This document shows positions 2,773 through 26,519 of a stretch of 36,850 nucleotides of DNA, piece by piece. The notes under the pieces were generated by a model. That model was not told the origin of the DNA and did not search any database. It saw only the letters and a list, made by a program, of their open reading frames with translations. Both the position numbers and the translations under genes were made by a program. Position 1 is the stretch's first letter; the number at the start of each line of letters is the position of its first letter. Source of the DNA: a virus; the IMG/VR virus record IMGVR_UViG_3300021077_000018, positions 1 through 36,850 of that record. One strand, given 5' to 3'.

Positions 2773-3684
2773 TTAACTTAATGCTAAGGACATTGCGATG
2801 GCGAACGCTTGGTCATTAGCTGAGTTTGTTGCTAATCCTGTATTGACTGCATTTACTGTTGGATATTTAGTTGCACTTGCTGTTAAGTCTGTCTGTTTGT
2901 TAGAAAGTAATTCATAGTTAGTTAAATCTGAAGCAAGGGCTAAATCAGATATTTTCTTTCCTCCATCTTTGATTAGTTTACCTGTAGCTCCATTGTAGAC
3001 TGCTATATCGTCTCCTGTAGCTCCTGCTGGTCCTGTTACATCACCTGTACCATTCGTTGTAAATTCAAGTCCTGAAGCATCAGATTTTACACTAACGACT
3101 TTACCTCCTTGCCCTGAATAAGAGGCTGGGACATCTGAGAGTTGTGTAAATTTAGTTACTCCTGAACTTGTTACTTTAAGAGGTGAATCATTTGTTCCAT
3201 CACCAGAAAGAGTATTATCGTGATTTACTTTAAGAATACCTCCGACTATATTTCCTTGAATAAATTGGTCTTTAGCACCCTTAAGCCATTCTGTATCTTT
3301 AAGAGATAATACTGAAAGTCTTTCAGCCCCCTCAAGGGAAGCTATTTTGTCTCGTACTTGTTCTGCTGTATCTGGTGAACCATCTATACCATTCTTTGGT
3401 TCTGGGATTAAAGGTTTTATTATTTCTAACAGTTTTTCATCAGAGGGATTTTCAGCATCTTTTCCTTTAAGTGGTTTTGGTATAAGAGGTTTTAATATAT
3501 TGATTAATTTTTGTTTAGTTTCTTCTTTATTATCTAGCGCAAAATCATAAGTATCATTAAATTTTTGTTCAATTTCTTTTACTTTAGTATCAAATTCTTG
3601 AAGTTTCTCAACTGTGTCTAATAGTATTTCTTCTGGCTTAGATGTTTTTATATATGCTTCTGTTAGTTTTTTCTTTTTATCCAT
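2773..3684 (-). CDS. Tail fibre protein with coiled-coil N-terminus and collagen-like segment
   Basis: This 303-residue protein is modular. Residues 1-75 are highly charged and probably coiled coil. Residues 75-115 are Pro/Lys-rich with repeated KPLIPKP/KPLIPEP motifs. A fibre-type segment follows (LSDVPASYSG near 180, typical of phage fibres), then a short Gly-Pro-Ala-Gly collagen-like turn (TGPAGATG near 218), and a C-terminal repeat region (TDLTASATKYPTVNAVNTG) of a type common in side-tail-fibre tips. It starts one base after the ATP-grasp stop, so the two are co-transcribed. Fibre assignment is good; adsorption target unknown. Confidence 0.8.
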   Translation of the reverse strand: MDKKKKLTEAYIKTSKPEEILLDTVEKLQEFDTKVKEIEQKFNDTYDFALDNKEETKQKLINILKPLIPKPLKGKDAENPSDEKLLEIIKPLIPEPKNGIDGSPDTAEQVRDKIASLEGAERLSVLSLKDTEWLKGAKDQFIQGNIVGGILKVNHDNTLSGDGTNDSPLKVTSSGVTKFTQLSDVPASYSGQGGKVVSVKSDASGLEFTTNGTGDVTGPAGATGDDIAVYNGATGKLIKDGGKKISDLALASDLTNYELLSNKQTDLTASATKYPTVNAVNTGLATNSANDQAFAIAMSLALS

Positions 3685-3685
3685 A

Positions 3686-5185
3686 TTAGATTATTATTTT
3701 TTTTAATGCTTTGCGAACTTCTTGTCTTTTCGCTTCATCTTTCTGTGCTTTGATTTCTTTTTGGTGCATTTTTTTCTTTTCAGTATCGGCTATGATATAA
3801 CCCCAAGCTTCTAAGTCGTCTTTGCATTTATGAAAGTTTGAATTTGTGAAATCATTTCTCCAGAATGCTTTTGGCACGATTATTTTCTTTAAGAGTTCGT
3901 TTAGTTTTTCACCAGCTTGTTCAACAGTTGTATCTTGTACTGACGCTGTGAGTACATACCCATCTTCGTTGGCTATTTCAAGTCTGTCATCTTTGAATCT
4001 TAAACCATCGGGATATATATGCGACCAATCTTCTTTAGTGAAGTCTTTAGTAAAGTTAAGTTTTATACCTTCTGAATTAGACATCTTAAAAGATATAGCT
4101 TGTTTGATTTCTTCAAGGCCTTGAGGGTTTTCAAATTCTTTATTTAGCTTAGAAAAGTTTACTGCTGGAAAAGGTTTAGTGTAGAGCCAAGATACTATAC
4201 AGTATCTGTCGTCGTATTTAAAATTTTTATCTTGCTTGCCATCTGCCATAGCTTTTAGAAACTCAAACCAACTTGATTTGTGTATTTCTAATTGCGCTGA
4301 AGTTGCTGGTACTCCCATTCTAGGTGTGAACTCTAAGAAGTAAGCACCTTTTTCTGTAACGATTGTATTTATATCTATATCGCCTCTGAAGTCTATTGAT
4401 TTAAGAAGTACTCGGCATTTATCTAAAGTCTCTTTAAAGATTTTAGAATACTTTGCTTTAGTGTATTGCATTACAGTATATTGTTCACCAGTAGACTCGC
4501 CAAGATTACCAGGGAAAAGAGATTTGTGTTCCCAGTTTTCTTCACAGATTTCATCGCCATCAGAATCTTTCATAAATTCTTGACCATTCCAATAAGAGCC
4601 GACTGCCATTTCGTGGCCTTCAACTTTTTCTTGAAGTACAAAGTCTTTTTCAACGCCATCTTCCCAACGTTCTTCGAGTATAGGCAAGAAGTCTAACAAG
4701 TCTTCTGAATTAGGCATCTTTGCTACGAAGTTAAGACCTTTAATCTCGTCAATCTTGCCTTGTTGTTTGAGAACCCACTTACCTCCACGTTCTTTGATTA
4801 TGTCTCTGACTTCTTCAAAAGAAGATATTTCAATCATTTCTGGCACTAAAATACCAGACTTTTTAGCTATGTTATTAGCCCAAGTTCTATCTAGTTCTAG
4901 TTTGTCTGTTAGTTTATCACCACCGATTACGCTTAAACCTTGCTTTCTAAGGTCGCTAGATTCTCCTTTGTTAGACTTGTCCTCATAGATTACTAAGTCG
5001 CAAACTGAAGCAAATTCAAGCCTGTCAGAGTACTTTATACGCTTTAATGTGCCTTTGAGTATGTTTGTAGGGCGTTTTAAGGCTAAATTAACATCACAAC
5101 CTTCATTTTGTAAGCAAAGAGCCAAAGAAGGAGCGAGCCATTCGTCGGAGATAATTAAAACTTTCTTAACTTCTTTTTGTTTCAT
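3686..5185 (-). CDS. PurD-like ATP-grasp ligase encoded within the tail region
   Basis: The first 320 of 499 residues follow the layout of glycinamide ribonucleotide synthetase (PurD). There is a Rossmann-like N-domain (KKVLIISDEW, residues 7-16), then an ATP-grasp fold with the ATP-binding Lys in WVLK (K140), the hinge LQEKVEG (184-190), a Gly-rich FPGNLGESTG loop (224-233), and the metal-binding LEFTPRMG (284-291), which matches the LEFNxRFGDPE signature of PurD. Residues 320-499 are a Lys-rich extension not typical of PurD. ATP-grasp enzymes join a carboxylate to an amine through an acyl-phosphate. True purine synthesis seems odd for one isolated gene beside fibres; modification of a small peptide or virion protein is an alternative. 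It follows a small HTH gene and directly precedes a fibre gene. Enzyme class is well supported; substrate is unknown. Confidence 0.8.
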   Translation of the reverse strand: MKQKEVKKVLIISDEWLAPSLALCLQNEGCDVNLALKRPTNILKGTLKRIKYSDRLEFASVCDLVIYEDKSNKGESSDLRKQGLSVIGGDKLTDKLELDRTWANNIAKKSGILVPEMIEISSFEEVRDIIKERGGKWVLKQQGKIDEIKGLNFVAKMPNSEDLLDFLPILEERWEDGVEKDFVLQEKVEGHEMAVGSYWNGQEFMKDSDGDEICEENWEHKSLFPGNLGESTGEQYTVMQYTKAKYSKIFKETLDKCRVLLKSIDFRGDIDINTIVTEKGAYFLEFTPRMGVPATSAQLEIHKSSWFEFLKAMADGKQDKNFKYDDRYCIVSWLYTKPFPAVNFSKLNKEFENPQGLEEIKQAISFKMSNSEGIKLNFTKDFTKEDWSHIYPDGLRFKDDRLEIANEDGYVLTASVQDTTVEQAGEKLNELLKKIIVPKAFWRNDFTNSNFHKCKDDLEAWGYIIADTEKKKMHQKEIKAQKDEAKRQEVRKALKKIII

Positions 5186-5190
5186 CTAGT

Positions 5191-5220
5191 ATAGGTTTAT
5201 TATTTTGTATAATAACCTAT
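5191..5220. promoter_or_regulatory. AT-rich palindrome between HTH gene and ATP-grasp gene
   Basis: The outer arms ATAGGTT and AACCTAT pair perfectly and continue inward through TATTAT/ATAAT with one bulged base, giving about 12 pairs around a small loop. It overlaps the HTH gene's stop codon and ends 5 bases before the ATP-grasp start. It could be a DNA operator for the adjacent HTH protein or an mRNA hairpin controlling ATP-grasp translation. It lacks a following T-run, so it is not a classic terminator. Confidence 0.45.
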
Positions 5221-5399
5221 TATAACATATTTCTAGTTTTTTTAACACAATTATTTAACTTTTCCCAATTTTTTAGTGTGAAACTATGCTTTCCATTGAG
5301 CCAATTATAGATTGTTTGCCTAGAAACACCCAATTTCTTGGATGCTTCTTTTATTGTTTTTCCTTTAAGGAAATTTTTTAGGTTTTGTAGTGGGTTCAT
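5220..5399 (-). CDS. Small helix-turn-helix DNA-binding protein
   Basis: This 59-residue protein contains one clear HTH: IKEASKKLGVSRQTIYNWLNG at residues 16-36, with the classic Gly turn and a recognition helix beginning at Ser26. That pattern is typical of small Xre/transposase-type HTH proteins. Its ATG overlaps the TGA of the preceding 82-residue gene by four bases (ATGA), which strongly supports it as a real gene despite its size. An AT-rich palindrome overlaps its stop and could be its operator. It is probably a local regulator of the ATP-grasp/fibre genes or of the strong promoter at 6.58 kb; this is inference. Confidence 0.8.
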   Translation of the reverse strand: MNPLQNLKNFLKGKTIKEASKKLGVSRQTIYNWLNGKHSFTLKNWEKLNNCVKKTRNML

Positions 5400-5644
5400 T
5401 TTATTTTTCTTAACTCATCTACAATTAATTGAGCAAGGTCTATTTCTTTTTTTTTCTTTTGTTTAATTATTTTGTTTAAAGGTACTACTATTGGTTGACC
5501 ATTACCTCTATCAAGAACTACATAACCTTCAACACTTGAAGCCATTACATAAGTTCCAGTTCTGTGTTCGCCACCAGAAGCTATATATTTTATTTTCTGT
5601 CCTCGTTTAAAGTTTAGTTTCATTTCGTTTAATAGTGAGTCCAT
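5396..5644 (-). CDS. Small basic protein with SH3/KOW-like beta segment, unknown function
   Basis: The 82 residues show a probable small beta-barrel core at about 12-58 (GQKIKYIA, GTYVMASS, GYVVLDR, PIVVPLNKI), a Lys-rich linker (KQKKKKE) and a C-terminal amphipathic helix. The core resembles SH3-like or KOW-like folds that bind nucleic acid or protein, but I cannot name a family. It overlaps the HTH gene by four bases and starts six bases after the Cys-rich gene's stop, so the cassette is co-translated. No SD sequence precedes the start; the context is A-rich. Confidence 0.65.
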   Translation of the reverse strand: MDSLLNEMKLNFKRGQKIKYIASGGEHRTGTYVMASSVEGYVVLDRGNGQPIVVPLNKIIKQKKKKEIDLAQLIVDELRKIK

Positions 5645-5650
5645 AATTTT

Positions 5651-5851
5651 TTATTTATTATCTACTAATGATTCCGACCAACTGTTTCCATTCATAATAC
5701 ATTTATCATTTTTACCTCCAGTTAAAGAATATTGTTTACCTGGAATTGGTTTATCTTCACATTTACATACCCCGCAATTAGCACAACCTAGTCCGCAACA
5801 ATCTGAAATTATCATATCACTTGCCACACAATCCTTTTTTTTATGTATCAT
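5651..5851 (-). CDS. Small Cys-rich protein
   Basis: Of 66 residues, nine are Cys, most of them in the tight block DCCGLGCANCGVCKC at residues 17-31. This looks like a metal-binding knuckle or a disulfide-rich peptide. There is no signal peptide. The C-terminal half (GKQYSLTGGKNDKC) is polar. It is the second gene of the cassette that ends in the ATP-grasp ligase, so one possibility is a substrate peptide for that enzyme; another is a zinc-binding regulator. Neither can be decided from sequence. Confidence 0.6.
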   Translation of the reverse strand: MIHKKKDCVASDMIISDCCGLGCANCGVCKCEDKPIPGKQYSLTGGKNDKCIMNGNSWSESLVDNK

Positions 5852-5855
5852 ATAT

Positions 5856-6413
5856 TTAATAAATTACTTTATAACTTGGTATCATTTTTCCTTCTCGACT
5901 ATCGAAGAAATATGATGTTGCTCCGTCATTGTCAAATCCCCAATCAGTAGCTTTATTCCAGTAACTCCAACTTTGTCCAGTTCCTTTTTTAGTTGCAAAA
6001 CTTGTTGTATTGTTTAGAGTAACTTCTGTATCTCGACTTCTATCTGGGAATTGAGAGTTTTCAATTCTAACTTTTTTACCGACTGTTAAAAATTTCTTTA
6101 AAGCTCCGAGAGTAGCTGGCTTTCCATTCGTTACTACACTTTTAATAGTCATATCTACTTCTGGGAACAATGGCTGATTAATTCCTAACTCCTTGATAAA
6201 CTTGTTAGCTAGAACGTGATGCTTAGCATTATCATAATCACTAACAGTAACTTCATCTCCATTATCTATGTATTGTTTAGCATATTTCAATACACTTTTC
6301 TGAGTTGATAAAGCCCAAATTCCTGGAAAGTAATCTGTCATTACATCTTTATCAGTCTCATTAACCAAACTAAAACTTGAATCTCCACTTATAATCAATG
6401 TATATTGTCTCAT
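5856..6413 (-). CDS. Hypothetical protein, first gene of the ATP-grasp cassette
   Basis: I do not recognise this 185-residue protein. It begins with a beta-strand region (QYTLIISGDSSFSLV), has a helical middle (residues 35-85), and a C-terminal part (residues 100-185) with several Trp and aromatic residues (GQSWSYWNK, ATDWGFDND, SYFFDSREGK) that suggests a compact beta fold. It is the first gene after the TTGACA/TATACT promoter at 6567-6595 and its 150-base structured leader. It is therefore probably expressed strongly, and perhaps at a different time from the virion genes upstream. Confidence 0.65.
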   Translation of the reverse strand: MRQYTLIISGDSSFSLVNETDKDVMTDYFPGIWALSTQKSVLKYAKQYIDNGDEVTVSDYDNAKHHVLANKFIKELGINQPLFPEVDMTIKSVVTNGKPATLGALKKFLTVGKKVRIENSQFPDRSRDTEVTLNNTTSFATKKGTGQSWSYWNKATDWGFDNDGATSYFFDSREGKMIPSYKVIY

Positions 6414-6438
6414 AGTTATTTATAATAATTAATAATGA

Positions 6439-6525
6439 ATGATTGATGACGAGTCAATCATAATTTTCAAAAAGAAAATTAAAAATAATTTCTCCCTGGA
6501 ATTGCTGTCAGTTATATCCAGGGGG
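6439..6525 (-). promoter_or_regulatory. Three-hairpin structured 5' leader of the ATP-grasp cassette
   Basis: Between the promoter at 6567-6595 and the ATG at 6413 the transcript would fold into three hairpins in series. H1 is at 6492-6525 (CCCTGGA/TCCAGGG, extendable to nine pairs, 16-base loop). H2 is at 6462-6480 (AATTTTC/GAAAATT, five-base loop). H3 is at 6439-6461 (ATGATTGA/TCAATCAT, seven-base loop). H1 is followed by a T-rich stretch and might act as an attenuator. No known riboswitch class was recognised. With the promoter and the end of the kinase gene this accounts for the 310-base gap 6414-6723. Confidence 0.6.
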
Positions 6526-6566
6526 AAACTTAAGATTTGAAAACTCAAAGAACAAACTACATATAG

Positions 6567-6595
6567 AGTATATTCTTTCTTTATTTAAATGTCAA
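6567..6595 (-). promoter_or_regulatory. Strong sigma70-type promoter (TTGACA-17-TATACT) of the ATP-grasp cassette
   Basis: The -35 TTGACA (6590-6595) and -10 TATACT (6567-6572) are separated by 17 bases, reading leftwards. This is one of the two closest matches to the sigma70 consensus in the window. The 16-mer TAAACTGTGGATAACT (plus strand 6609-6624) lies just upstream and recurs upstream of the other TTGACA promoter at 30.1 kb. Confidence 0.8.
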
Positions 6596-6635: not shown

Positions 6636-6773
6636 TTAACCTATATCTTTACTGGTTTTTAGTGCTTCCAAAGAAGCTTTTAGAAAAATACTATTAGGAT
6701 TATTTACAATAATCTTTTTTCCTTTATTTAATGAGAGCTTCGTATTGAGCTTTTGTGATTGTTTTGTTTTCAT
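6636..6773 (-). CDS. Possible small basic protein overlapping the kinase gene end
   Basis: A 45-residue Lys/Asn-rich frame starts inside the last 50 bases of the zeta-kinase gene and runs past its stop, ending SKDIG. Its non-overlapping part includes a small hairpin (GATTATT/AATAATC). No recognisable domain or ribosome-binding site is present, and A/T-rich DNA makes such frames by chance. I list it because it is the only frame that would fill the space before the promoter at 6.58 kb. Confidence 0.25.
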   Translation of the reverse strand: MKTKQSQKLNTKLSLNKGKKIIVNNPNSIFLKASLEALKTSKDIG

Positions 6774-8904
6774 ATAATTTCTTTGTTTCATTAATAAATA
6801 ATTTTTGCAAACCTTCTTTAGAGTCAAACTCCAAAGAATGAAACTTACTGATTTCCATTATTGTTTGGTTTCCTTTTCCAAGAGAGTTATCAATCAAGTT
6901 GATTTCAACTTCTCCTGTACTGAATGAACCACGGCTCAACAAGTCCTTAATAGTATTATAACTCCCAATATGATTTTCTGCAACTACCGAAGCGGGTACT
7001 GCTCTTCCCATCTCTAATTCATTACTAAGCATTCTATGTACTACACTATTCCAAGATTCTACTGGGTCTCTGTAAACATAGTTAATTTTTGCTGCTTTAC
7101 CGGCCGAATGAGCTTCTCCTATTCTTGCTTCTGCTGATTTTATTGTGGATAGGTTACCATCCAAAACAACAGATGCGTTATCCAAAGCTTCTTTAATATG
7201 GCCTAAAGATTGAGCTGCACTTGTTTTTCCTGTTCCTGAGCCACCAGCAAAAATAAAAGCATCACCTTCATTTTTTAGACCTTCTTTGTATAAATGTTTT
7301 GCCAAAGCTGAAGCTGGTTCTTGTACGGCGGCCGCGTTAGTTCCTTTATAGCCTTCTTTTATAAATAGACGTCTAGCACTATCACTATTTACTATTTTAC
7401 CGTTCTTTGTGTCTGGTAGTTTTTTATATTCCTCTATTAACTTTTGAGGATTATCTTGTAGTTTTTTGATAGCCGCAGATTCAACCTTTCTGTCTTCTGG
7501 AGAAAGATTCTCTGCTGGTTTTATTTCGTTGAAAGTTTTGACTGAATTTGTTTCGTTAGTTGGTCGGATTTCGCCGTTACCTTTTAAACTTCCTTGCAAT
7601 TTAGGTTTTAAGATATTGTTTAATTCAGTAGTAGCTTCTTCCTCTGTCTTAGCACTTAGAGCTTTAGTTAGAGATTCCAAATTCTTTTGTAGTCCTTTTT
7701 CAAGGTCTAGAGCGTTCATAATTTTAAGGCCTTCACCTCTAGGAACAAAAGATTGAACAAATCCTTTTAATCCTCCGCCTGTTATTTTATCAGCAACTTG
7801 AAAGACTAGTCTTCCTAATTTTTCTCCCCAACCTCTTTCAGTTACTCTTTGTTTTAACTTGTTGACACCTTCTTCTACCTTACCTACTAAATCTTTAGTT
7901 CTTATTGTATCTGAAATTTGTTTATCAAGTGCTTTATATTCAGAGCCTCCAAAAATATCTCTAGCCGTTGTTTTTAATCCTGTTCTAGTATTTTCAGCAG
8001 CCTGTTTTGTAAGTCCTGAAGCAGCTTGTCCGTTTGCATTAAAAGCATTTATTGTATTTCCGTGTAGTTTAGCAAGGTCATTTATTTCTTTTACGGTTAA
8101 ACCTTTTTCAGTTGCTTTAGCTTCTAACTGATTTATCTTTTCTAAGCCAGCAATATCATTTACTGAGGTAAAATGTGATTTTAGTTGTTCTAAGGCATCT
8201 GTAACATAGTTATGAGATACAGTTTTATCGCCTATTTTAATTCCAGTAGATAAATCATTTAATTTTTTTACTGTTGTATTTTTCTCTAAGATAGAATCTA
8301 AAGAACCAGAAACTGTTTTAACTTTTTCATCTAGGGCTTTAGTCAAGTCAGCATAAGTTTTTATTTTTGAAGTATCTACTTGGGACAATACTTTTTGAGC
8401 TTTTGGAATATCCTCTATTTTACCTTGAACTATTTTACCAGTTAATTGTTCTGCTGTTTCTGTTTTACCGGCAGCTTTTTCAATTAAACTTGCTCCAGCC
8501 TTTTCAATTGTTGGGATAGTTTCCTCAGCTCCAAAAGGTATCGCAAGTTCTCCAATTTTTTCTAAATTTTTACCCATTGCCTGGTCTTTGTTGCTTGCTT
8601 TAGTTGCTTGGTCTATTTTAGGTTTTACGTTAAATATATCTGCACCTGTTATTCCGGGAGTTGCAAAATTAGATTGTCCTAACGTTTCTCCTACCCCTTT
8701 AACTAAACCTTTTCCTAATTCTACTAGATTAGGTTTAGGTAGTTGTGAACCAGGTACTAAGCTTTTCATTTTATCTGTATAAGAAGGTGCTGGTGCTTGA
8801 GGGGTTGCAACAGGGGCTGGTTGTCCAGGCTTCCAAACTTGAATACCACTAGCTGATGGTGTCGGTGTAGCTGTTGCTTTTGGATTAAATGGTGTGATTG
8901 GCAT
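6724..8904 (-). CDS. Virion ejection protein with C-terminal zeta-toxin-like kinase domain
   Basis: This is a 726-residue multidomain protein. Residues 1-45 are Pro/Ala-rich. Residues 60-420 are mainly helical and resemble helical regions of phage ejection proteins (LAKLHGNTINAFN near 282-294, then a GLKTTARDIFG segment). From about 500 the sequence matches the zeta-toxin/P-loop kinase style of polyvalent proteins: NSDSARRLF, then VQEPASALAKHLY, then the Walker A AGGSGTGKTS (553-562), followed by VVLDGNLS and a basic GRAVPASVVAENH segment. Zeta kinases phosphorylate UDP-sugar precursors of peptidoglycan or other small substrates. Being part of a virion-type protein suggests it is injected with the DNA. 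It starts two bases after the stop of the 687-residue gene. Kinase fold is well supported; substrate and ejection are inferred. Confidence 0.75.
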   Translation of the reverse strand: MPITPFNPKATATPTPSASGIQVWKPGQPAPVATPQAPAPSYTDKMKSLVPGSQLPKPNLVELGKGLVKGVGETLGQSNFATPGITGADIFNVKPKIDQATKASNKDQAMGKNLEKIGELAIPFGAEETIPTIEKAGASLIEKAAGKTETAEQLTGKIVQGKIEDIPKAQKVLSQVDTSKIKTYADLTKALDEKVKTVSGSLDSILEKNTTVKKLNDLSTGIKIGDKTVSHNYVTDALEQLKSHFTSVNDIAGLEKINQLEAKATEKGLTVKEINDLAKLHGNTINAFNANGQAASGLTKQAAENTRTGLKTTARDIFGGSEYKALDKQISDTIRTKDLVGKVEEGVNKLKQRVTERGWGEKLGRLVFQVADKITGGGLKGFVQSFVPRGEGLKIMNALDLEKGLQKNLESLTKALSAKTEEEATTELNNILKPKLQGSLKGNGEIRPTNETNSVKTFNEIKPAENLSPEDRKVESAAIKKLQDNPQKLIEEYKKLPDTKNGKIVNSDSARRLFIKEGYKGTNAAAVQEPASALAKHLYKEGLKNEGDAFIFAGGSGTGKTSAAQSLGHIKEALDNASVVLDGNLSTIKSAEARIGEAHSAGKAAKINYVYRDPVESWNSVVHRMLSNELEMGRAVPASVVAENHIGSYNTIKDLLSRGSFSTGEVEINLIDNSLGKGNQTIMEISKFHSLEFDSKEGLQKLFINETKKLYENKTITKAQYEALIK

Positions 8905-8906
8905 AA

Positions 8907-10970
8907 TTAAATTCTTGTATAATCGCTAGTAATTTCATTGTCATTATCTGCGAGCGCTGTTTCACCTGTTGCATTATTTATGATTGCAATTTTTCCTTTT
9001 GGTACTGATTTTATAAAGTCATCATATTTCATTCCGAGATTTGTTAAAACAGTATCAACGAATTGATTAGAAGTCATTTGTCCTTTTGCTATTGGAGCAT
9101 TAACTGTTGGTTGTTCTGTTTTAGTACCGACAGACATTGAACCAGAAGTTTCTTTGATTTGTGTATCATATCCTTGAATAGTTGTATCCATTTCTTTCTG
9201 TAAGAGTCCAAGGGTGTCAGAAAGTTGTCCGTTTGTAAGAGCAGTAGAAATAAGAGATGCTGCTTCTTGTCTAGCTGAGTCTGAAGAACCTGCTGCTGAA
9301 CCAGTTGAGCCTGCCATAATCTTTGCATATTCATTTGAGAATGTGATAAGCGCGTTTGAAAGTAATTTAGCTGGTGTATCTCCTTTTTGAATCTTAAACG
9401 CAACAAGGGCTGAGTTAACTGATTGCCAATTATCTCTTGTAACACTGTCATTCAATGAAGGTACTTGTTTACCTGATACTGGGTCTTTATAACCATTTAA
9501 TATCATATCAATCTGAGCTTTAGCTTTGTTTTCATAAGCTGCGACTGTAGATTTCATTGTGATGAGTTTACCGATTGCTGTACTATTTGCTTTATAAGCT
9601 GCTGTTAATTCTGTTTCGGTCATTCCAAGTGAAGCTGCAATGTTAGCTGCTTTTGTTTTAACTGCTGTATCGTATGCTTTAGCTGAAGGCTTACTACTCA
9701 TACCCATTTTCTGATATTTACCAGTTTGTGCATATCTAACTGCGTCTTCAAATACTTGGCCGTAAGTTGCACCAAGTGTTCCAGGATATGCTGTATTTCT
9801 ATTCTCATCAGTTGGAGCATCTGGTACTTTAGCAAAGTCTGTATAGGTTACATTACCTTTAGATGTATTAACTGCGCTTGATGATATATTACTTCCTTTA
9901 GAGCCAATAGAAGAACCAGAACCAATCAATGTTTCTTTACCTGTTGAATCTATCTTAACTGACTTACCTGAAAGATTTACGAAGTGTTCTCCAACCTTAC
10001 TACCGTCTGAATAATCATTTACTTTTTTATAACCTGATTGGATTAATTTATCTTCGAATTGTTTTTGTTGAATTGCTGTTTTAGTATCAAATTGTTCTTG
10101 TTGAATTCCTGTTTTGGTTGCAAATTGAGACTCTTGAGATGCTTGTTTTTCTTTAGCTAAGTCTAAGTTTGCTTGTTTAGCTGCTTGATTTTGAGCATTA
10201 GTATAGTCTCCTTTGGCTTTTTGATAGTCTTGATTTGCTTTTGTGTATTCGTTTGCAAGTTCTTTTCGGCGAGCAAGGAGAGGTTCATTTTCTCTTAGAA
10301 GTTCAGAAGTTAGAGAAGCTTCGTTTACAACACCGCCAGAACGAGCGATTTCGTCCATTTTTGATTGTTTAAGAGCTGCAAGTTGTTTGTCTATATCGTT
10401 TACTGCTTGCTGTGCTGATTGTTGTGTTGCATACGCTGTATCTACGCTCGTTTTGGCTGTAGCGATAGGGTCGTCAACGGGTGCTTGAGGGGTTGCTGCT
10501 GCCGCTACTGTGCCTCCTACTGTGTTAGTTGTGTCAGTAGTGTTTATTGTATTGTCTGTATTAGTTGTATTTGTAGTATTAGTTGAAATTGCACCAGGTA
10601 CAGTTGGAGGAGTTACTGGTTTTCCACTTTTAATAGCATTCAAAAGAGCCATATTGCCTTCTGCTGTTCCAACATTTGTTATTCCGTATTGCTGGCCTAG
10701 TTTTTGACGATTAGCCATTGAAGAATCTTGACCAACTGAAGTTAAATAATCAACAATAGAATTTGGGTTTAGTTTAGCGTGGGTGTCTTTTAGATTAGCT
10801 AGAGTTTGAATAGGAGAGTTTTGATGTGTAACTACTTCGTGAGGTGTTGCATCACGATTTAATTGCTGATTAAAAATATCATTGATTTGATTTGGTTGAA
10901 GTCCACCCGGTTTAGTTTGTTGTAATGTTCCTCCTAGCGAATCTTTTTTAGTTAAGTCTGTTGTGTCCAT
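8907..10970 (-). CDS. Large virion protein with hendecad coiled coil (internal or ejection protein)
   Basis: This 687-residue protein is rich in Ala, Thr, Gln and Ser. Residues 1-100 hold a short domain with NRDATPHEVVTH. Residues 125-165 are a Thr/Asn-rich low-complexity linker. Residues 165-310 are a long coiled coil with a nearly exact 11-residue tandem repeat (TKTGIQQEQFD then TKTAIQQKQFE). The C-terminal 300 residues are helical. No enzyme motif is visible. Position between the nozzle-like gene and the kinase-tailed protein suggests an internal virion or DNA-ejection protein. A TGGTATAAT promoter element ends 8 bases before its ATG. Confidence 0.7.
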   Translation of the reverse strand: MDTTDLTKKDSLGGTLQQTKPGGLQPNQINDIFNQQLNRDATPHEVVTHQNSPIQTLANLKDTHAKLNPNSIVDYLTSVGQDSSMANRQKLGQQYGITNVGTAEGNMALLNAIKSGKPVTPPTVPGAISTNTTNTTNTDNTINTTDTTNTVGGTVAAAATPQAPVDDPIATAKTSVDTAYATQQSAQQAVNDIDKQLAALKQSKMDEIARSGGVVNEASLTSELLRENEPLLARRKELANEYTKANQDYQKAKGDYTNAQNQAAKQANLDLAKEKQASQESQFATKTGIQQEQFDTKTAIQQKQFEDKLIQSGYKKVNDYSDGSKVGEHFVNLSGKSVKIDSTGKETLIGSGSSIGSKGSNISSSAVNTSKGNVTYTDFAKVPDAPTDENRNTAYPGTLGATYGQVFEDAVRYAQTGKYQKMGMSSKPSAKAYDTAVKTKAANIAASLGMTETELTAAYKANSTAIGKLITMKSTVAAYENKAKAQIDMILNGYKDPVSGKQVPSLNDSVTRDNWQSVNSALVAFKIQKGDTPAKLLSNALITFSNEYAKIMAGSTGSAAGSSDSARQEAASLISTALTNGQLSDTLGLLQKEMDTTIQGYDTQIKETSGSMSVGTKTEQPTVNAPIAKGQMTSNQFVDTVLTNLGMKYDDFIKSVPKGKIAIINNATGETALADNDNEITSDYTRI
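10056..10121. repeat. 33-bp tandem repeat (two copies) encoding coiled-coil hendecads
   Basis: Two adjacent 33-bp units (10056-10088 and 10089-10121) differ at a handful of positions and encode 11-residue repeats in the 687-residue virion protein. A degenerate third unit follows. Hendecad length fits a coiled coil, so copy-number change would lengthen the rod without breaking the frame. Confidence 0.75.
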
Positions 10971-25758: not shown

Positions 25759-25794
25759 TATTTCTTAGATGGCTATTTACCATCGGTTAGTTAC
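25759..25794 (-). repeat. Shared leader repeat, copy A (before the DPPY methyltransferase)
   Basis: A 28-base block (25765-25792) is identical to 26492-26519. On the minus strand it contains GATGG and CCATC, which pair around a 7-base loop just upstream of the start codon. Its 3' half (CTAAGAAAT then ATG) is also shared with copy B at 26261-26281. Confidence 0.75.
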
Positions 25795-26261: not shown

Positions 26262-26281
26262 ATTTCTTAGATGGCTATTTA
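26261..26281 (-). repeat. Shared leader repeat, copy B (partial, before dam)
   Basis: The 21 bases TATTTCTTAGATGGCTATTT plus A match the 5' portion of copy A (25759-25779) but lack the half that would form the GATGG/CCATC hairpin. It includes the base before the dam start. It looks like a truncated copy. Confidence 0.65.
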
Positions 26282-26491: not shown

Positions 26492-26519
26492 TTAGATGGC
26501 TATTTACCATCGGTTAGTT
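26492..26519 (-). repeat. Shared leader repeat, copy C (before the 70-residue gene)
   Basis: Identical over 28 bases to copy A. The GATGG/CCATC hairpin is intact. It begins directly after the stop of the 166-residue gene. Three of three consecutive genes here carry this leader, and none of the others in the window do. Confidence 0.75.

What the first reader, a model, noticed from the sequence alone, without database searches (positions are those of the whole stretch)
3686..6595. ATP-grasp cassette inside the tail region: a candidate undescribed system
A near-consensus promoter, a three-hairpin leader, a 185-residue unknown protein, a Cys-rich 66-residue peptide, an SH3-like protein, a 59-residue HTH and a 499-residue PurD-like ATP-grasp enzyme form one co-directional block between the ejection proteins and the fibres. 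A lone PurD homologue is hard to explain as purine synthesis. Peptide or virion-protein ligation (the Cys-rich peptide being a possible substrate), or nucleotide theft, are alternatives.
Basis: partly seen in the sequence, partly recalled or inferred. Interest (0 to 1): 0.78.

Follow-up and report, generated by a model that had tools for sequence, protein, structure and literature searches.

The report
Phage PurD-like ligase beside ejection genes
Many uncultured phages carry, right behind the gene for a large protein thought to be injected into the host, a relative of the purine enzyme PurD whose substrate-binding signatures have been replaced in a uniform way, so it probably joins different molecules; the small genes next to it in this window are only a local insertion.

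Summary
The "cassette" is not a unit. Four phages whose enzyme is 65-76% identical keep the ATP-grasp gene at the same place but lack the 185-, 66-, 82- and 59-aa genes. One of them has an HNH-type ORF in the same junction. The small genes are best read as a moron with its own promoter.

The ATP-grasp gene is the real finding. It belongs to a large phage clade: at least 581 IMG/VR stretches, 66 groups at 70% identity, and sporadic Paraburkholderia prophages. The clade is split from PurD by a 100/100 branch. AlphaFold gives a full PurD fold (pLDDT 91; Z 31.7 to human GAR synthetase). ATP-grasp core residues are kept. PurD signatures are replaced uniformly: GREH 0/62, TGGMG 0/62, GDPE 0/62; instead E234, D271, T287 and R100 in 62/62.

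In 58 of 63 representatives with room, a co-directional ORF of 217-1527 aa, usually large and ejection/polyvalent-like, precedes it directly; 30 overlap it by exactly 4 bp. Purine synthesis is unlikely. I favour a late-expressed amide ligase that modifies, or travels with, the ejection protein. Its substrate is unknown.

The parts
3686..5185 (-). 499-aa PurD-fold ATP-grasp ligase, founding sequence of the phage subfamily described here
   Evidence: GARS_A 28.9 bits against a cut-off of 27; TIGR00877 purD 75.4 bits against 288; AF2 pLDDT 91; VIA-align Z 31.7 to 2qk4; residue table
6724..8904 (-). 726-aa large virion/ejection-type protein with a C-terminal zeta-toxin-like kinase segment; positional counterpart of the protein that directly precedes the ATP-grasp in other phages
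   Evidence: Zeta_toxin E=2.2e-7; position compared with relatives
2773..3684 (-). 303-aa tail/fibre protein directly downstream of the ATP-grasp; homologues in the same place in L001-L004
   Evidence: phrog_11660 tail protein E=2.5e-7; blastp 33-41% identity to the downstream gene in L001-L004
6414..6595 (-). promoter (TTGACA 6595-6590, TATACT 6572-6567) and hairpin leader of the inserted small-gene cassette
   Evidence: 11 of 12 consensus; MFE -37.2 kcal/mol, z=-3.39
5220..6413 (-). inserted four-gene cassette (185, 66, 82 and 59-aa HTH proteins), probably a moron, not part of the conserved unit
   Evidence: absent from the same junction in L001-L004; 30.8% GC against 35% in its neighbours; no viral relatives of the 185- and 82-aa proteins

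Best explanation
The 499-aa protein is a late-expressed, ATP-dependent carboxylate-amine (amide) ligase. It belongs to a phage-specific subfamily that arose from a PurD-type ATP-grasp and has exchanged its substrate pocket. ATP presumably phosphorylates a carboxylate, which an amine then attacks, as in PurD, but the substrates are not phosphoribosylamine and glycine as PurD holds them. Because its gene is the fixed, often translationally coupled (ATGA overlap) follower of a large ejection/polyvalent-type virion protein, its most likely target or travelling companion is that protein: either it modifies it before packaging or it is delivered with it. Shown: the clade, the fold, the kept core, the replaced PurD signatures, the gene linkage. 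Inferred: activity, chemistry, target. The four small genes between the two partners in this window are a separate local insertion.
For: Clade: 62 phage rows and 8 PurD rows separate at 100/100; the one extra row inside the phage side, L118, is identical to phage row L108. Residues: 62/62 keep the ATP-grasp core (K140, E192, K221, G229, E285, R289, G291, P293, R443, D445), and 62/62 change PurD D214 to E, G229 to E, Y271 to D, N288 to T and K105 to R; GREH, TGGMG and GDPE occur in 0/62. Fold: full-length PurD, Z 31.7, next best PurK at 23.8. Linkage: 58 of 63 representatives have a co-directional ORF of at least 200 aa directly upstream, 30 of the 58 at exactly -4 bp; controls give 18% for -4 overlaps among other pairs, and 15% against 65% for a gene of 400 aa or more just upstream. 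Payload domains in the upstream proteins: Zeta_toxin, ART-PolyVal, SLT, HNH. Tail-fibre genes downstream. Three members carry inteins at the conserved TGE loop, as inteins usually do at essential active sites (general knowledge). Host genomes of five members have their own strong PurD.
Against: No activity, substrate or virion proteomics is known for any member. The upstream proteins are mostly unrelated in sequence and most have no family match, so 'ejection protein' rests on position, size, composition and a few domains; in L012 the upstream gene is portal/Mu-F-like. No fusion of the enzyme to an ejection protein was found: the long ORFs L020 and L136 are read-through frames, not fusions. 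Late-operon position alone could also reflect expression timing.
Confidence: 0.5

Rival explanations
1. It makes a small molecule (an amino-acid conjugate or modified nucleotide/sugar) in the infected cell, for instance to counter defence or alter the cell surface, and sits in the late operon only for timing.
For: ATP-grasp ligases of this fold group often act on small molecules: PylC, PurK and PurT are the next structural neighbours. No partner enzyme is needed for a one-step ligation.
Against: Does not explain why the gene follows one large virion gene so tightly across clades of about 25% identity. No conserved second enzyme next door.
Confidence: 0.25
2. Auxiliary metabolic PurD: a functional GAR synthetase that boosts purine synthesis, as automatic annotation would call it.
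For: All 38 members tested hit TIGR00877 purD and GARS_A. A report of purD as a phage auxiliary gene exists (PMC11097641), though it is not known whether that gene is this family.
Against: Window scores 75 bits against a cut-off of 288. The GREH, TGGMG and GDPE signatures are missing in 62/62. GARS_N is matched by 0/38. No purine genes nearby. Hosts have their own PurD.
Confidence: 0.06
3. A structural or chaperone protein of the virion that uses the PurD fold without catalysis.
For: Invariable place among virion genes.
Against: Core ATP-grasp residues are invariant across a clade with identities down to 21%. Inteins sit at the active-site loop.
Confidence: 0.1
4. One reading: the enzyme works with the 66-aa Cys-rich peptide and the other small genes.
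For: Co-directional in this window, with no terminator-like site between them.
Against: None of the four genes occurs in the junction of L001-L004 or in any of the other enzyme loci tested by phmmer. The peptide's only relative lies in a record in which the family search found nothing.
Confidence: 0.03

Closest known systems
GAR synthetase PurD (EC 6.3.4.13; TIGR00877; structures 2qk4, 2yw2, 2xcl, 1gso)
   Same: Whole fold over 396-403 residues (Z about 31); ATP-grasp core residues; C-terminal R-x-D motif.
   Different: Phosphoribosylamine motif GREH absent; TGGMG replaced by TGE[QM]; E-F-N-x-R-x-G-D-P-E replaced by E-F-T-x-R-x-G-[WYV]-P; an invariant Asp replaces Tyr in the strand before the catalytic Glu; no purine operon; phage-only clade.
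R2K ATP-grasp clade in phages and NCLDVs (Burroughs et al. 2015, PMC4431377)
   Same: Phage-borne ATP-grasp proposed to modify proteins.
   Different: A different ATP-grasp branch; no Pfam ATP-grasp match here other than the GARS domains.
LUZ24-like phage ATP-grasp next to amidoligase and glutamine amidotransferase (UFV-P2, PMC3890496)
   Same: ATP-grasp amide-forming enzyme in podoviruses.
   Different: That one is 291 aa, early region, with amidoligase and amidotransferase neighbours; this one is 430-500 aa in the late ejection/fibre region with neither.
Polyvalent proteins delivered by phages (Iyer et al. 2017, PMC5512222)
   Same: The upstream genes resemble them: large proteins among virion genes, with ART-PolyVal, zeta-toxin-like or lysozyme-like domains.
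   Different: The ATP-grasp is a separate gene, not a domain. The passages of the paper that I read mention ATP-grasp only for RNA ligases.

Membership tests
PurD / GAR synthetase | NCBIfam TIGR00877 equivalog score of at least 288 bits | tested here: not met
   Window 75.4 bits; all 38 members match, best E=3.4e-35
PurD / GAR synthetase | N-terminal G-x-G-G-R-E-H motif (phosphoribosylamine site; role from general knowledge) | tested here: not met
   GREH in 0/62 phage members; R, E and H at their three columns invariant in 8/8 PurD
PurD / GAR synthetase | N-T-G-G-M-G loop and E-F-N-x-R-x-G-D-P-E motif | tested here: not met
   TGGMG and GDPE in 0/62 against 8/8
PurD / GAR synthetase | Overall fold with N, ATP-grasp and C domains | tested here: met
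   AF2 pLDDT 91.1, Z 31.7, 398 residues aligned to 2qk4
PurD / GAR synthetase | Phylogenetic placement among PurD | tested here: not met
   Separate clade, 100/100 support, 62 phage against 8 PurD rows
PurD / GAR synthetase | GAR synthetase activity | not testable with these tools
   Needs enzyme assay or complementation
ATP-grasp superfamily | ATP-grasp fold with the conserved Lys/Glu/Arg core | tested here: met
   K140, E192, E285, R289 invariant in 62/62; fold
R2K ATP-grasp clade | Match to R2K/DUF4343 models | tested here: not met
   hmmscan of all 38 members finds only GARS_A, GARS_C and one weak DUF166
Polyvalent/ejected virion protein (upstream gene) | Large protein among virion genes with several effector domains, packaged and injected | tested here: inconclusive
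   Size and place met; effector-type domains found in some only; packaging not testable here

The most novel reading that the evidence does not exclude
A widespread, undescribed phage enzyme that post-translationally ligates an amino acid or small amine/carboxylate onto the genome-ejection protein (or is injected with it to do so to a host protein), a covalent modification step in phage ejection that has not been reported.
Probability: 0.35. Interest if true: 0.8.

Novelty: new variant of a known kind. Interest (0 to 1): 0.6.

Why it matters
Hundreds of environmental phage contigs carry a gene that automatic annotation would call purD and could list as an auxiliary metabolic gene. The evidence here says it is a different enzyme, bound to the virion ejection module. 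If it modifies or accompanies the ejected protein, it would be a new chemical step in phage assembly or infection. It is testable in Paraburkholderia lysogens.

Tried and rejected
Cassette as a unit: rejected. Small genes as a known family: no Pfam or PHROG match for the 66- and 82-aa proteins; the 185-aa protein has only a sub-threshold TumE hit (16.6 bits, cut-off 23.4), and its single-sequence model is poor (pLDDT 54), so no fold search was made. Leader as a known RNA: Rfam gives only chance hits. Natural fusions of enzyme and ejection protein: L020 and L136 are out-of-frame read-throughs, L045/L050/L054 are inteins. Cultured phage members: only MW202796, an environmental record; other database hits are ordinary PurD or unannotated. 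Bacterial hits near 140 bits in Pseudomonadota: ordinary PurD with GREH and TGGM in the three examined. Literature: no held paper found on this family; the 'purD' text hits checked were names such as Purdue. No specific acyl or amine substrate could be assigned from sequence.

Full report
WHAT IS THERE. The window is a 36,850-bp linear virus record, 33.8% GC, with nearly all large genes on the minus strand: Sf6-like terminase small subunit, terminase, capsid, SU10-type adaptor, two large genes at 8907-10970 and 6724-8904, then the block in question and fibre-like genes.

THE CASSETTE IS NOT A UNIT. In L001-L004, whose enzyme is 65-76% identical to the window's, the order is adaptor, large genes, ATP-grasp, fibre homologue, with 2-86 bp in front of the ATP-grasp gene in three of them and none of the four small genes. 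L003 has a different insertion in the same junction, a 166-aa ORF that by eye looks like an HNH homing endonuclease; Pfam finds no match. No relatives of the 185- and 82-aa proteins were found in viral contigs or phages. The 66-aa peptide shares only its C-terminal 32 residues with a protein of an unrelated GC-rich phage, in whose record a family search found nothing. With its own promoter and lower GC (30.8% against 35%) this is best read as a moron.

THE ENZYME FAMILY. The 178 loci in hand, five of them from bacterial genomes, fall into 66 groups at 70% identity. In bacteria the family appears in 5 of 146 Paraburkholderia genomes at 580-615 bits, in phage-like surroundings in the loci inspected; in 398 Pseudomonadota genomes the only other hits over the 1e-40 limit score about 140 bits, and the three examined are ordinary PurD. 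Five host genomes or MAGs that carry members also carry strong PurD hits at 181-273 bits. A maximum-likelihood tree splits the 62 phage members from 8 PurD with 100/100 support.

NOT PURD. The AlphaFold model (pLDDT 91) is a complete PurD fold: Foldseek's first 15 hits are all GAR synthetases, VIA-align Z 31.7 to human GARS against 23.8 for the best PurK. But the window scores 75 bits against the 288-bit purD cut-off, and GARS_N is matched by none of 38 members. On a joint alignment, residues of the ATP-grasp core are unchanged in 62/62, while PurD-invariant positions change to a different invariant residue: D214 to E219, G229 to E234, Y271 to D271, N288 to T287, K105 to R100; GREH, TGGMG and GDPE are found in 0/62. 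Uniform replacement with a kept core suggests an active enzyme with another substrate. From general knowledge, an acidic residue in the strand before the catalytic Glu is usual in amino-acid-ligating ATP-grasps; PurD lacks it and this family has it (D271). Three members carry intein-like insertions at the TGE loop, two of them with a LAGLIDADG match.

GENE LINKAGE. Of 63 representatives with enough upstream sequence, 58 have a co-directional ORF of 217-1527 aa directly in front, most of them over 500 aa; 30 of these overlap the ATP-grasp by exactly 4 bp. Among other adjacent pairs in the same contigs 18% overlap by 4 bp, and 15% of comparable genes have a gene of 400 aa or more just upstream, against 65% for the ATP-grasp under the same calling. 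The upstream proteins are mostly unrelated to each other, Gly/Ala-rich, often begin with tandem short motifs, and some contain zeta-toxin, ART-PolyVal, SLT or HNH domains, as described for injected polyvalent proteins (PMC5512222). Downstream genes are often tail-fibre-like.

MECHANISM. The most economical reading is an amide ligase made together with the ejection protein, acting on it or travelling with it. Catalysis, substrate and target are inferences; position and family facts are shown. Alternatives are weighed in the rival list.

NOVELTY. The fold and superfamily are known; the phage subfamily, its distinct active site and its link to the ejection gene were not found described in the held literature. 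That search covers open-licence papers only, and the 2009 amidoligase review of Iyer et al. could not be read.

Noticed in passing
L045:5824-8121, L050:5540-7825, L054:4864-7134: Intein-like insertions (about 310-325 aa; LAGLIDADG_3 match in L045 and L050) at the conserved TGE loop of the ATP-grasp.
   Followed up: partly
L001, L016, L030, L031, L032, L036, L037, L044, L047, L053 (protein directly upstream of the ATP-grasp): N-termini start with two to four copies of a short motif that differs between phages (FDPSTA, IVDPF, PPLESFL, GPWExY, GFEVVK and others), perhaps a packaging or docking signal.
   Followed up: partly
window 1-36850: Only 1 of 35 main genes has a Shine-Dalgarno-like sequence; the 20 nt upstream average 82% A+T. 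This points to a host that initiates without Shine-Dalgarno.
   Followed up: partly
window 25765-25777, 26267-26279, 26492-26504: AATAGCCATCTAA occurs three times exactly, each just before the start codon of an early gene (N6/N4 methylase, Dam-like methylase, 70-aa ORF): a shared leader or operator.
   Followed up: no
window 6724-8904: The large virion-region protein ends in a zeta-toxin-like kinase segment (Pfam Zeta_toxin, residues 577-656).
   Followed up: no
L119:2548-3108: The 32-residue C-terminus of the window's 66-aa Cys-rich peptide recurs at the end of a 186-aa protein in an unrelated GC-rich phage, suggesting a small mobile domain.
   Followed up: partly
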